A DNA stretch of 64,000 nt from the NCBI GenBank assembly GCA_900318035.1, contig ONJC01000001.1:29413-93412 (forward strand), written 5' to 3'. This DNA comes from an uncultured Methanobrevibacter sp. GTDB taxonomy: Archaea; Methanobacteriota; Methanobacteria; Methanobacteriales; Methanobacteriaceae. Below the pieces are notes generated by a model. That model was not told the DNA's origin and searched no databases. It was given only the letters and a program-made list of their open reading frames with translations. Shown here piece by piece: positions 961 to 41,069 of this stretch (positions within the stretch are counted from its first letter, which is position 1; every line of letters starts with the position of its first letter). A program made the position numbers and the translations under genes.

Positions 961-1515
961 TTAGAATGCTACTGGAGCAACTCCATTATCTTTATTGAAT
1001 TGTGTTAATTTGGACATTAAGTTTGTGTTGTTAATGTTACTCATGTCTTTGGCCCAGAATATGACTGTGTATTGTTGGCCTCCGAAGTTTACGACTTCTA
1101 TGACTCCGTGTTCTGCATCATCGTAGTCGGTGAATGAAGCTGTGTTGTCTGCATTTTTGGAAATTTGCATATTATCGCGTATTCCGTTGTTAACGGTGCC
1201 GCCGTTTTGAACAACGTAATAATCGTCGTCATAGCCATCATCATCGTAATCGTAGTATCCGTCATCGTCGTCATAGTAGTAGTATCCGTCGTCATCATAA
1301 CCATCGTCATCGTAGTCGTGGTAATATACTGCTTCTGTGTTTTTGTAAATGGAAACTCCTGAATCTCCATTGTTGTTCACATATGCTGAGCTATAGTCAG
1401 ATCCATATGAGTTGTTATATCCGTCTACTTTGAATTCATTCATGTTTACGGCATATGCACTGCCAATCAGTAGTGTCGTAACGATTAATGCAAAGAATAT
1501 TTTTTTCATGCTCAT
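961..1515 (-). CDS. Secreted Tyr/Asp-rich low-complexity protein
   Basis: No function is recognised. The 184-residue protein begins with a clear signal peptide (MKKIFFALIV..., cleavage probably after AYA). The middle, roughly residues 65-105, is a low-complexity run built almost only from Tyr, Asp and Gly in DYDDDGY-type units. The C-terminal 70 residues look like an ordinary small fold. The start was set at ATG 1515 because GAGGTG sits about 9 bases upstream; a GTG three codons earlier overlaps that site. It resembles in layout the secreted protein at 33763-34362 (same signal-peptide style, similar C-terminal pattern), which suggests a loose family of small exported proteins. The acidic repeat could bind divalent metal or coat the wall; that is inference. 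Confidence 0.75.
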   Translation of the reverse strand: MSMKKIFFALIVTTLLIGSAYAVNMNEFKVDGYNNSYGSDYSSAYVNNNGDSGVSIYKNTEAVYYHDYDDDGYDDDGYYYYDDDDGYYDYDDDGYDDDYYVVQNGGTVNNGIRDNMQISKNADNTASFTDYDDAEHGVIEVVNFGGQQYTVIFWAKDMSNINNTNLMSKLTQFNKDNGVAPVAF

Positions 1516-38334: not shown

Positions 38335-38419
38335 AATATAATTCCATTTAGCATTTGTTAATATAAATTTAAATTAAATGATTAATATAGTATATGTATT
38401 AATCGTCTCGGGTCATAAT

Positions 38420-39499
38420 ATGGAAAGTAAGATAAGTGTCATCAAAAAAGATTATGGAATTTGCATTAACAATCCGGATTATTTTTTAGCTTTCAGCGAC
38501 TTTACGGTAAGTGACGGCATTGACATTGTTGAAAATGTCAATATCCTGAATGCAAAGGATGAGTTTGAATCCACTGCCAAAAGGGCCGAAGCCTTCAATC
38601 AGCTTCAGGGTTCCTATATTGCACAGGCGTCCGATTCTTTGGATTATTTTGTAAATACCTATGCTGATTTGACCATTTTTACTTTTCTCTCAAATGATGT
38701 TGTAATTGAAGATTTCACAGACGAACTGAAAGTTGCCAACTCTCCAAAAGGATTCAGGGATGCAAGAATTAACATAAATCATATTATTTTCATTGACAAG
38801 GCAATAGCTCCTCGTGACCTGCTTAAGATATTCAAAATCGCCACGGATGCCCGAGCAAAAGTTCTGGCCAACATGGCAATACCTTTACATATTCAAAATA
38901 TCTTAAACAAGAATGACTTTTTAGCAATTCTTTCAAATGTCAACGGTGACGGAAAGGTTTTAGACATAAACAACGCATTATATGACAGGATTGACATTGG
39001 CGATTTAAAAACAAGAATCGAAGATGCAATCGAGATAAGCATTGAGGACGCATTTGAAAAAATGGATTTGACTTTCGGAATCCTGGATTACTTCGTATCG
39101 GAAGGAATACTCATCGGGGATTTGGTGGAAGCCGGACTTGAACTGGCCGATGACGTTGAAATAACCGAAGATTTGAAAGCCAAACTTGAAGCGCAGATTC
39201 TAAAATCATTGACAGACATCAATGTCATTGCACTTTTGGTGGCCGCAATGAGAACAGAACAGGATTTGACCGGAAAACACATAAGGGAAGTTGACGTAGC
39301 AGACGACCCGGATTATTTCCACACAGATGAGGTTTTGGGTTTTGCCATTGCAAACCAGATTGCAGGAACCAAGGGAGCATTTAACTTTAAAAGATACAGA
39401 CATGAAAAACCTGGCATCATTTACGGATTGCCTCCGATGCTTGATGATATTTTCGCAGGTCTTATTGCCGGATGCATGTCAAAAATATTTGAGGAATAA
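38420..39499 (+). CDS. CobZ/PgpA-family C-terminal domain protein, probable alpha-ribazole phosphatase
   Basis: A 359-residue protein. The C-terminal ~90 residues ([28 protein letters not shown]... ending [11 protein letters not shown]) match the PgpA/CobZ fold, whose DD motif (MLDDIFAG) is catalytic. CobZ of Methanosarcina removes phosphate from alpha-ribazole-5'-phosphate in B12 synthesis. The following gene is cobS, 2 bp away, which strongly supports the B12 role. The N-terminal ~260 residues are not recognised; some archaeal CobZ proteins are fused to a CbiZ amidohydrolase, but I cannot see that domain's motifs. Start ATG 38420; GGTCATAAT precedes it. Confidence 0.75.
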
Positions 39500-39501
39500 A
39501 A

Positions 39502-40284
39502 ATGGAAAATGATGATTACTTTGAAGATGAAGAGTTCTCCCCTATCAGGTCACTATTAGGGCTTTTGACATTCTCAACAATACTTCCAATCAATGTGTTC
39601 ACGTCAATTGAGTATATGACCAAGCTTACATGGTGCTGGCCGTTTTTACATATTTTTATTGGGATTCTGGCAGCGGCATGCGGGTATGTTTCAATCGAGT
39701 TTTTACATTTGAATTCATTTTTCACAGCAGCTATCGTTTATGCGTTTTTAATGATCATTACCGGTTACAACCATCTTGACGGTGTAATGGACATGGCGGA
39801 TGGAGTCATGGTTCACGGGCCTCCGGAAAAGAAAATAAGAATCATGAAAGACCCGTCAGTCGGAGCTGGAGGGGTTGCAACATTATTTTTGGTGGCGAGC
39901 CTGACAATTGCAGGTTTGTATAGCATCCTTGATTACAACTTTATTTTCGGCATCATAATTTGTGAGATGACTGCAAAAACATCTCTGCTTACAACTGCAC
40001 TGTTGTCCAAGCCTCTGACTCCTGGAATTGGCAGTTATTTCATGAAAGAAACTACTGTGTCAAACTATCTTGTATCAACATTGATAATTGCAGTAATCGC
40101 ATTGCTTTTGGGCAATTTTGTCGGTTTGATGGGTGTTATCGGTGCCATCGTCAGCGGTTTGCTGATTGCAGTAATCGCAAGGCGCAATTTTGTTTTGGCC
40201 AACGGTGATGTATTGGGAATGAGTAATGAGGTCGGTAGGTTATTCTCTTTATTGTTCATGTCAGTTGTCTTATTTTACTTATAA
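39502..40284 (+). CDS. cobS: Adenosylcobinamide-GDP ribazoletransferase (cobalamin synthase)
   Basis: An integral membrane enzyme (260 residues) that joins adenosylcobinamide-GDP and alpha-ribazole (phosphate) to complete the corrinoid. Hallmarks: NHLDGVMDMADGVM (Asp-rich Mg site), RIMKDPSVGAGGV, and several hydrophobic segments. An acidic N-terminal extension (ENDDYFEDEEF) precedes the first membrane helix. Start ATG 39502, 2 bp after the CobZ-like stop. Methanogens need corrinoid for Mtr methyltransferase. Confidence 0.93.
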   Translation: MENDDYFEDEEFSPIRSLLGLLTFSTILPINVFTSIEYMTKLTWCWPFLHIFIGILAAACGYVSIEFLHLNSFFTAAIVYAFLMIITGYNHLDGVMDMADGVMVHGPPEKKIRIMKDPSVGAGGVATLFLVASLTIAGLYSILDYNFIFGIIICEMTAKTSLLTTALLSKPLTPGIGSYFMKETTVSNYLVSTLIIAVIALLLGNFVGLMGVIGAIVSGLLIAVIARRNFVLANGDVLGMSNEVGRLFSLLFMSVVLFYL

Positions 40285-40330
40285 CTTATTTTTACAACTT
40301 AAAATCAATATTGAAGTTTAATTTGCGATT

Positions 40331-40342
40331 ATTTTATATATT
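40331..40342 (+). promoter_or_regulatory. TATA box of the candidate small RNA
   Basis: ATTTTATATATT is centred about 27 bp before the base of the predicted terminal stem at 40364, the usual archaeal TATA-to-start distance. Confidence 0.5.
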
Positions 40343-40363
40343 TGGTAGTTTATAATTAGTATT

Positions 40364-40484
40364 GGTGAGATTGGCCATGAGCCCCCCTTTTCAATACATG
40401 TTTTTTTACCACAAAATTTTCTTGAAATTAATTTCTATTACCTCCCTAAAAATTTTTTGAATGTGGCCATCTCGCCCTATTTTT
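40364..40484 (+). ncRNA. Candidate structured small RNA, ~120 nt
   Basis: A 245-bp gap between cobS and the aTrm56 gene contains GGTGAGATTGGCCA (40364-40377) and TGGCCATCTCGCC (40464-40476), which form a 13-bp stem with one bulged U and one G-U pair, closing a loop of about 86 nt. A TATA box lies ~27 bp upstream of the 5' arm and a T5 run (40480-40484) follows the 3' arm directly. The loop is AU-rich except for GCCCCCC (40380-40387) and ACCTCCC (40439-40446), C-rich stretches able to pair with GGAGG ribosome binding sites. It does not match 5S, SRP, RNase P or tRNA. Strand is inferred from the promoter and T-run. Confidence 0.6.
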
Positions 40485-40529
40485 AGTAATTTTTAAATAT
40501 TTTTACAATTTAATCTAATAATTGATAGT

Positions 40530-41069
40530 ATGAATGTTAATGTTTTAAGATTGGATCACAGATTGAAAAGGGATACTCGTATTACAACTCACGTGTGCTT
40601 AACTGCCCGTGCATTTGGAGCCAGTAAAATATATCTTGCAGGAGAACGTGACAACAGGCTCATGGAGAATGTTAAAGACACCGCTTCCAGATTTGGAGGA
40701 AATTTCGAAATAGAATATACGGAAAGTGCAATGGGTGTCATAAACAGATGGAAAGCTGACGGTGGAAAAGTGGTTCACCTGACAATGTACGGTTCGCAGG
40801 CTCATGAAATTGCACCTGAAGTGAGAGAAGATGGTTCCGACATTTTAATTGTTGTCGGCGGTGCCAAGGTTCCCGGAAAAGTATATAAGGCGGCTGACTG
40901 GAATGTTTCAGTGACTACACAGCCCCACTCTGAAGTATCCTCACTGGCTGTATTTCAGCACTTGCTGATGGACGGTAAGGAATTTGAGTTGGAATTTGAA
41001 AATCCGGTTCTTGAAGTCATTCCTACAGCCCACGGCAAAACAGTTAATGTTCATGATGAAAACCGTTAG
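40530..41069 (+). CDS. tRNA (cytidine(56)-2'-O)-methyltransferase, aTrm56
   Basis: A SPOUT-class enzyme (179 residues) that methylates the ribose of C56 in archaeal tRNAs. The N-terminus VNVLRLDHRLKRDTRITTHVCLTARAFGA is diagnostic, and the trefoil-knot SAM site is VVGGAKVPGKVYKAADWNVSV followed by TQPHSEVSSLAVF. Start ATG 40530 after TTGATAGT, with no strong ribosome binding site. The 3' end overlaps the convergent DUF763 gene by 4 bp. Confidence 0.92.
   Translation: MNVNVLRLDHRLKRDTRITTHVCLTARAFGASKIYLAGERDNRLMENVKDTASRFGGNFEIEYTESAMGVINRWKADGGKVVHLTMYGSQAHEIAPEVREDGSDILIVVGGAKVPGKVYKAADWNVSVTTQPHSEVSSLAVFQHLLMDGKEFELEFENPVLEVIPTAHGKTVNVHDENR

What the first reader, a model, noticed from the sequence alone, without database searches (positions are those of the whole stretch)
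40364..40484. Candidate new small RNA with anti-Shine-Dalgarno-like loops
A 13-bp terminal stem (40364-40377 with 40464-40476, one bulge, one G-U pair), a TATA box about 27 bp upstream and a T5 run directly after the 3' arm together describe a complete RNA gene of about 120 nt in an otherwise empty gap between cobS and the aTrm56 gene. The loop carries GCCCCCC and ACCTCCC, which could pair with GGAGG ribosome binding sites like a C-rich regulatory sRNA. It matches no RNA family I know.
Basis: partly seen in the sequence, partly recalled or inferred. Interest (0 to 1): 0.75.

Follow-up and report, generated by a model that had tools for sequence, protein, structure and literature searches.

The report
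Archaeal RNA mimicking ribosome docking tail
A group of gut methane-making archaea carries, at one fixed place in the genome, a predicted small RNA clamped by a conserved stem, whose open loop closely copies the eight-letter ribosome tail that docks on messenger RNAs; it likely blocks that docking site on some messages and so would turn their protein production down.

Summary
Of 65 cobS-aTrm56 junctions taken from the window's genus, 43 carry this hairpin gene, 21 have almost no gap, and one holds a tRNA-Gln instead; one more genome, kept out of the models, also carries it. Across the 43, the stem pairs in 94.9% of cells, 7 of 13 pairs change on both sides, and G-U cells outnumber A-C by 30 to 3, which marks the + strand as the RNA. 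A TATA element lies 30-32 nt before the stem in all 43, so transcription is predicted to begin at the stem. The loops diverge freely except for one octamer, U(C/U)(A/G)CCUCC, in 38 of 43: the Shine-Dalgarno-binding end of archaeal 16S rRNA. The RNA matches no Rfam family and was found only in this genus among 150 genomes of the order. Best reading: a trans-acting RNA that covers Shine-Dalgarno sites and represses translation, working like alpha-proteobacterial NfeR1 or loop 2 of Methanosarcina sRNA154 but shown to be related to neither. Transcription and targets are untested; my limited target searches found no specific mRNA.

The parts
40302..40316 (+). AAATCAATATTGAAG, dyad-like element about 17 nt upstream of the TATA box; possible activator or operator site (function unknown)
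   Evidence: Exact in 17 of 43 homologous gaps, its core ATCAATATT in 30 of 43; the only exact copy in the host genome.
40333..40340 (+). TATA box (TTTATATA) of the RNA gene
   Evidence: A TATA element begins 30-32 nt before the stem in 43 of 43 gaps; predicted start site about 40362-40364 (inference).
40364..40378 (+). 5' arm of the terminal stem
   Evidence: Pairs with 40463-40476; 7 of 13 pairs show changes on both sides in 43 sequences.
40379..40462 (+). large loop, variable in length and sequence among relatives
   Evidence: The consensus of 28 main-clade rows places no helix inside the loop beyond the terminal stem; single sequences can form weak local hairpins.
40381..40387 (+).
   Evidence: Found in 1 of 43 homologous gaps, the window's own.
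40438..40445 (+). anti-Shine-Dalgarno octamer TTACCTCC (family consensus T[CT][AG]CCTCC)
   Evidence: Consensus in 38 of 43 homologues; CCTCC in 39 of 43 against 1.46 expected from shuffled loops; information falls to 0.10-0.46 bits upstream beyond position -4 and 0.25-0.82 downstream.
40463..40476 (+). 3' arm of the terminal stem
   Evidence: Covariation with the 5' arm.
40480..40484 (+). T5 run, possible transcription end
   Evidence: Sequence; TTTT within 15 nt of the arm in only 19 of 43 relatives; termination is inference.
40492..40499 (+). TATA-like element (TTTAAATA) of the downstream aTrm56 gene, separate from the RNA
   Evidence: TATA-like element found between hairpin and ATG in 42 of 43, 35-41 nt before the ATG in 30.
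39502..40284 (+). cobS (adenosylcobinamide-GDP ribazoletransferase), upstream neighbour
   Evidence: TIGR00317, 171.3 bits, above cut-off.
40530..41069 (+). aTrm56 gene (tRNA C56 2'-O-methyltransferase), downstream neighbour
   Evidence: NF003048, 204.9 bits, slightly below its cut-off of 223.

Best explanation
The gap encodes a predicted small RNA of about 115-125 nt, closed by a conserved 5'-3' terminal stem, whose open loop displays a close copy of the anti-Shine-Dalgarno end of 16S rRNA (U(C/U)(A/G)CCUCC), and this RNA likely acts in trans by pairing with Shine-Dalgarno sequences of mRNAs and blocking ribosome docking. Shown by comparison: the stem, its strand, the fixed TATA spacing, the fixed location and the conserved octamer. 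Inferred: transcription starts at the first bases of the stem and ends near the T-run; the stem protects both RNA ends; the octamer, presented single-stranded, pairs with 8-10 nt of GGAGGUGA-type leaders; the outcome is repressed translation of a set of SD-led mRNAs under a condition not yet known. Because flanking loop bases are not conserved, target choice would depend mainly on the SD itself plus species-specific flanking pairs, not on one conserved long target site.
For: Covariation in 43 homologues: 94.9% of cells paired, 35 double-changed cells against 11.7 in shuffles (0 of 500 as high), 7 double-changed pairs against 3.6 (1 of 500), above every slid register. Strand: 30 G-U against 3 A-C cells. 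TATA 30-32 nt before the stem in 43 of 43. CCTCC in 39 of 43 loops, once each, against 1.46 expected. The bases before CCTCC carry 1.83, 0.95 and 1.71 bits; at the two variable core positions the changes keep pairing to GGAGGUGA by G-U in 38 of 39 and 39 of 39 rows. Mean probability unpaired is 0.82 at the motif against 0.63 for the loop, higher in 38 of 39. The anti-SD of class Methanobacteria is listed as UCACCUCCU (PMC10783764) and the archaeal 16S 3' end as AUCACCUCCU (PMC7531240); AUCACCUCC forms the SD duplex in a Pyrococcus 30S structure (PMC7005279). Held-out genome G050 carries the stem, a TTTATTAAT element and UUUCACCUCCC. Precedent in methanogens: sRNA154 loop 2 masks a ribosome binding site and sRNA41 is proposed to (PMC5867862); sRNA162 does so by its single-stranded linker (PMC3510493 abstract).
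Against: No transcript evidence was available. No specific target was found: GGGAGGTAAT occurs in the host genome only antisense to the RNA itself and antisense inside another ORF; GGGAGGTAA is not above its control in the host (11 against 15) or in six carriers together (57 against 81); an 11-nt complement of the clade-B loop occurs once in each of four genomes, in three of them antisense to the RNA itself. Four of 43 homologues (L040, L043, L056, L077) keep the stem but lack CCTCC, and L046 departs from the octamer. The U that follows CCUCC in 16S is matched in only 6 of 39 loops. SD-like 5-mers are only weakly enriched before ORF starts in my sample (31 of 95 against a shuffled mean of 17.3, maximum 36). 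The 16S 3' end could not be located in 8 genomes searched, so identity with it rests on papers. The terminator T-run is weakly conserved.
Confidence: 0.66

Rival explanations
1. 16S-tail decoy for proteins: the loop copies the 16S 3' end so that a ribosome-assembly or initiation protein that binds that tail is captured, and no mRNA pairing is involved.
For: The conserved octamer equals part of the 16S 3' end. Bacterial Era and archaeal Dim2-type factors contact this region (recalled; Era reviews seen only as listings).
Against: C-to-U and A-to-G drift in the octamer keeps pairing to SDs, whereas a protein reading exact bases would more likely forbid it. The GG just upstream of the 16S stretch is not conserved in the loops.
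Confidence: 0.12
2. Cis element: the hairpin is the 3' UTR or terminator of cobS, or a 5' leader controlling aTrm56, not a separate RNA.
For: Every strong match lies between the same two genes on the same strand. In genomes without it cobS and aTrm56 nearly abut, so an operon there is likely. The T-run after the hairpin is weak in relatives.
Against: A TATA at fixed spacing before the stem in 43 of 43 and a second TATA-like element between hairpin and aTrm56 in 42 of 43. A terminator would not need a conserved anti-SD octamer in a variable loop.
Confidence: 0.1
3. Positive regulator: the RNA pairs near start sites but protects or opens target mRNAs instead of repressing them, as one mode of Methanosarcina sRNA154.
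For: sRNA154 stabilises nif mRNAs and represses glnA2 with the same RNA (PMC5867862 passages).
Against: Pairing over the SD core itself is expected to exclude the 30S subunit; the conserved loop bases are the SD-complementary ones.
Confidence: 0.07
4. The functional transcript is the minus strand, whose loop would carry a GGAGGUGA Shine-Dalgarno, either as a small gene or as a decoy for 16S rRNA.
For: The reverse strand reads GGAGGTGA in many relatives, and the TATA-like element beside the 3' arm is nearly symmetrical. The models also match the minus strand at lower scores in some genomes.
Against: 30 G-U against 3 A-C cells. A TATA at fixed distance lies on the + side. ATG at SD spacing with an ORF of at least 10 aa in only 5 of 39.
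Confidence: 0.03
5. Chance hairpin in an AT-rich spacer.
For: Intergenic, AT-rich, one copy in the host genome.
Against: Covariation, conserved octamer and fixed TATA spacing across 43 genomes.
Confidence: 0.02

Closest known systems
NfeR1 / alpha-r14 sRNAs of alpha-proteobacteria (PMC10746234, passages read; it cites the 'cuckoo RNA family' paper for them)
   Same: Trans-acting sRNA with an ultraconserved anti-SD motif presented in unpaired regions while stems vary; silences ntrB mRNA by pairing at its translation start.
   Different: Three hairpins each with CCUCCUCCC, in Bacteria; here one terminal stem and one octamer in a large loop, in an archaeon, matching the archaeal 16S end. No Rfam match to any family.
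sRNA154 of Methanosarcina mazei (PMC5867862, passages read)
   Same: Methanogen intergenic sRNA; loop 2 carries an anti-RBS sequence that masks glnA2.
   Different: Another methanogen lineage, two stem loops, nitrogen-regulated; no link found by the Rfam scan (whether Rfam holds it was not checked).
sRNA162 of Methanosarcina mazei, RF02792 (PMC3510493, abstract and passages read)
   Same: A single-stranded region of a methanogen sRNA masks a ribosome binding site.
   Different: Our gap scores 12.3 bits against a gathering score of 78, on the opposite strand: not a member.
sRNA41 of Methanosarcina mazei (PMC5867862, passages read)
   Same: Proposed to repress ACDS translation by masking ribosome binding sites.
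   Different: Targets and lineage differ; no link found by the Rfam scan (whether Rfam holds it was not checked).
3' end of archaeal 16S rRNA (PMC7531240, PMC7005279, PMC10783764, passages read)
   Same: AUCACCUCC(U), the anti-SD itself; 18 of 43 hairpins carry ATCACCTCC exactly.
   Different: Here the sequence stands alone in a stem-closed small RNA outside the ribosome; the last U is not kept.

Membership tests
Any Rfam 15 family | score at or above the family's gathering cut-off | tested here: not met
   0 matches in the 64-kb window; best sub-threshold match in the gap is sRNA162, 12.3 bits, E 8, minus strand.
alpha-r14 / NfeR1 sRNAs | three hairpins, each with CCUCCUCCC in an unpaired region | tested here: not met
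   One terminal stem in the consensus of 28 rows; exactly one CCTCC in 39 of 43 hairpins, none in 4.
Anti-SD-loop regulatory sRNAs as a working type | conserved, accessible SD-complementary motif in a loop | tested here: met
   Octamer in 38 of 43; probability unpaired 0.82 against 0.63 for the loop over 39 rows.
Anti-SD-loop regulatory sRNAs as a working type | pairs with mRNA start regions and changes translation | not testable with these tools
   Needs expression and binding data; the sequence searches for targets were negative.
Independent small RNA gene | own promoter at a fixed distance from the RNA | tested here: met
   TATA element 30-32 nt before the stem in 43 of 43; transcription itself untested.
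Independent small RNA gene | structure kept by compensatory change | tested here: met
   7 of 13 pairs (1 of 500 shuffles as high) and 35 cells (0 of 500).
Independent small RNA gene | own T-rich terminator after the 3' arm | tested here: inconclusive
   TTTTT in the window; within 15 nt of the arm TTTT in 19 of 43 and TTT in 35 of 43.
Archaeal C/D box sRNA | C box RUGAUGA near the 5' end together with D box CUGA near the 3' end | tested here: not met
   C box in 8 of 43, D box in 0 of 43, both in 0; the C-like bases lie in the stem. Box consensus recalled.
tRNA or tmRNA | ARAGORN match | tested here: not met
   0 genes in the window.

The most novel reading that the evidence does not exclude
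A global translation switch: an RNA copy of the 16S tail that covers Shine-Dalgarno sites across the transcriptome and so tilts the cell towards leaderless mRNAs. Its downstream neighbour aTrm56 fits this: in carriers the gene has no SD-like 4-mer before its ATG (0 of 43) and in 30 of 43 a TATA-like element so close that the mRNA would be nearly leaderless, while 11 of the 16 non-carriers examined (of 21) keep an SD-like 4-mer, mostly GGTGAT.
Probability: 0.2. Interest if true: 0.88.

Novelty: new variant of a known kind. Interest (0 to 1): 0.68.

Why it matters
In the paper passages and listings seen here, methanogen sRNAs with worked-out targets are those of Methanosarcina mazei. This would be a covariation-supported sRNA family in Methanobrevibacter, a dominant methane producer of ruminant guts (recalled), with a ready-made mechanistic test: mutate the octamer. 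It would also suggest that copying the anti-SD in a structured RNA arose separately in archaea and alpha-proteobacteria, and it makes the question of how SD-led and leaderless translation are balanced in archaea directly testable.

Tried and rejected
Targets by extended complementarity: GGGAGGTAAT in the host genome gave 2 sites, one antisense to the RNA and one antisense inside a long ORF. GGGAGGTAA in six close carriers gave 57 sites against 81 for the reversed control; 30 of the 57 were fetched and 4 of those 30 precede an ORF of over 40 aa at SD spacing. GGAGGTGAACC in four clade-B carriers gave no shared target. A duplex scan of the window gave no convincing start-region hit. The rest of the genomes' leaders was not scanned.

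Upstream dyad as a regulon signal: one exact site, 44 forward and 46 reverse hits with up to 2 mismatches (controls 17 and 12); 30 of the 90 were fetched, and of the 29 that are not the RNA's own, 23 lie inside ORFs of at least 80 aa, so no regulon was called.

R1 was built from 28 main-clade rows; 15 of the 43 were left out, among them the four without CCTCC. On those 15 it reached E < 0.02 at the right place in only 5, so divergent clades were placed by synteny and arms, not by the model. R2 was built from all 43, so only G050 is independent; there the model's octamer was laid on another stretch. R2 misses 5 of the 44 carriers at E <= 1, so absence outside the genus is shown only at that sensitivity.

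Alignment caveats: arms were first sought by pattern plus duplex energy, three rows (L037, L041, L069) re-anchored by hand, ends trimmed by pattern with two corrected by hand, and pairs set by hand; all this leans towards the stem. Pair 10-223 fails in 15 of 43 rows. In the 28-row set the count of pair types is weaker (29 of 500 shuffles as high). Positions 0-4 of the profile are CCTCC by construction; only the flanks carry evidence.

Start-codon SD census used crude ORF starts and was weak. Minus-strand gene and C/D box readings were rejected.

Full report
WHAT IS THERE. The 5' arm is 40364-40378, the 3' arm 40463-40476, a TATA box lies at 40333-40340 and a T5 run at 40480-40484. As RNA, 40364-40484 folds at -23.1 kcal/mol with z -3.45, and none of 200 shuffles does as well. 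Rfam has no match in the window and nothing credible below threshold in the gap. ARAGORN finds no tRNA in the window. The host genome, 88% complete, has one copy.

COMPARISON. The aTrm56 protein was found in 66 of 67 genomes of the genus. In 65 of them I took the DNA upstream of the gene (30 loci, 35 stretches); the 66th, G050, was cut by a contig end and kept for later. The junctions fall into three kinds: 43 with a 191-298-nt gap holding the hairpin; 21 in which cobS and aTrm56 nearly abut (L083 and L084 print longer only because the cobS match stopped early; L086 and L087 had no aTrm56 match in the fragment but show an ATG close behind cobS); and one (L054) whose gap holds a tRNA-Gln instead with what looks like a remnant of the 3' arm. 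On a quick CobS tree the 43 need three changes of label against 18.6 in shuffles, which fits one gain with losses, one of them in the pair L058/L064; supports are moderate, so this is not settled. Of 46 named contigs found with the protein, carriers and non-carriers together, 44 titles say Methanobrevibacter, with roe deer, goat, water deer and water buffalo named as hosts in part of them.

STRUCTURE AND STRAND. On the 43-row alignment A3 with 13 stated pairs, 94.9% of 548 cells form standard pairs, 7 pairs and 35 cells have changes on both sides (shuffles: 3.6 pairs, reached by 1 of 500; 11.7 cells, reached by none), and the covariation score is 0.254 against 0.161 in shuffles (0 of 500) and at most 0.109 in slid registers. 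The main clade alone (28 rows) gives 99.4% paired and 4 double-changed pairs. These rows are related and were trimmed at the arms, so shuffle counts are not probabilities. G-U pairs occur in 30 cells at 9 pairs and A-C in 3 cells at 3 pairs, which supports the + strand as the RNA. RNAalifold on the 28 rows finds only the terminal stem and leaves the loop open.

PROMOTER AND END. A TTTA-type TATA element (CTTATATA in one) begins 30-32 nt before the stem in 43 of 43 gaps: 40 by the script and three, where the script chose another site, (one of them the weak TTTACATAT of L077). From the usual archaeal spacing (recalled) the transcript would begin at the first bases of the stem. A second TATA-like element lies between hairpin and aTrm56 in 42 of 43; the first one found begins 35-41 nt before the ATG in 30 and farther away in 12. 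So hairpin and aTrm56 appear to be separate units. The 3' end is less clear: TTTT within 15 nt of the 3' arm in 19 of 43, TTT in 35 of 43.

THE LOOP. Hairpins are 82-134 nt long and their loops diverge, yet 39 of 43 contain CCTCC exactly once, against 1.46 expected from dinucleotide shuffles of the same loops. Anchored on CCTCC, the three bases before it carry 1.83, 0.95 and 1.71 bits, the fourth 1.02 (A or T only); farther upstream the profile drops to 0.10-0.46 and downstream to 0.25-0.82 bits. The consensus T[CT][AG]CCTCC holds in 38 of 43. Pairing to GGAGGUGA, G-U included, is kept at the two variable positions in 38 of 39 and 39 of 39 rows, and the contiguous match to the SD is 8-10 nt in 38 of 39; the U that follows in 16S is matched in only 6 of 39. 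PMC10783764 (table passage) lists UCACCUCCU as the anti-SD used by class Methanobacteria; PMC7531240 gives AUCACCUCCU as the archaeal 16S 3' end; PMC7005279 shows AUCACCUCC in the SD duplex. I could not find the 16S end itself in eight held genomes. The motif is more often unpaired than the rest of the loop in folding (means 0.82 and 0.63; L062 is the one exception of 39). The GCCCCCC run is in the window alone. Four rows keep the stem and lack CCTCC: L040, L043, L056 and L077.

RANGE. Model R2 (43 rows) finds the RNA at this locus in 39 of 67 genus genomes at E <= 1; 3 more have weak matches elsewhere, and 5 known divergent carriers are missed. In 150 genomes of the order, 37 match at E <= 0.1, all in this one genus of 19; the phylum search of 151 genomes gives the same 37. 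Distant relatives could be missed at this sensitivity. Held-out G050 matches at 31.7 bits and its loop contains TTTCACCTCCC, though the model laid its octamer on another stretch. Weak second matches in a few carriers (for example G040 at E 0.07) were not followed up.

HOW IT LIKELY WORKS. A stem-clamped RNA that displays the anti-SD single-stranded would most simply pair with SD leaders and compete with the 30S subunit. The same logic is documented for alpha-proteobacterial NfeR1 (PMC10746234 passages) and, in methanogens, for sRNA154 loop 2 and, as proposed, sRNA41 (PMC5867862 passages), and for sRNA162 (PMC3510493 abstract and passages). The tests above do not make it a member of any of these families. 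No specific target emerged. Either the seed is the SD itself, with selectivity from abundance, timing or species-specific flanks, or the target set could not be seen with these tools. A side observation fits a broad action: in carriers aTrm56 has no SD-like 4-mer before its ATG (0 of 43), while 11 of 16 non-carriers examined do (5 of the 21 were not examined).

NOVELTY. Ten paper searches of the PMC library, some with capped lists, showed no paper whose title or abstract start describes such an RNA in Methanobrevibacter; only passages of six papers were read, so absence from print is not shown. I rate it a new variant of a known kind: anti-SD-loop sRNAs are known, this family and its architecture are not among those found.

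Noticed in passing
L054 (G048) 1335-1408, minus strand: A tRNA-Gln (CTG) gene sits in the cobS-aTrm56 gap in place of the RNA, beside what looks like a leftover of the RNA's 3' arm.
   Followed up: partly
window 40302-40316 and homologous gaps: Dyad-like AAATCAATATTGAAG upstream of the RNA's TATA box, exact in 17 of 43 gaps (core ATCAATATT in 30); only exact copy in the host genome, possible activator or operator site.
   Followed up: partly
window 40492-40530 and homologous loci: aTrm56 changes initiation signals with the RNA: carriers have their own TATA-like element (42 of 43) and no SD-like 4-mer (0 of 43), while 11 of 16 non-carriers examined keep one, mostly GGTGAT.
   Followed up: partly
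L206 and L216 (genomes G015 and G055): Small membrane proteins with similar N-termini (TM2-like, by eye) are preceded by GGGAGGTAA at SD spacing, a perfect match to the loop motif of this subclade; possible target, not tested in other genomes.
   Followed up: no
L040 and L043: Two sister genomes keep the stem but lack CCTCC; their loops contain GGTGAT, SD-like rather than anti-SD-like.
   Followed up: no
window 38378-39499: 373-aa protein with a CobZ-like C-terminal part (below the family cut-off) and an N-terminal part without a match, upstream of cobS.
   Followed up: no
genome G039, contig C28, 259-743: The aTrm56 match is split into two pieces, probably a frameshift or assembly error.
   Followed up: no
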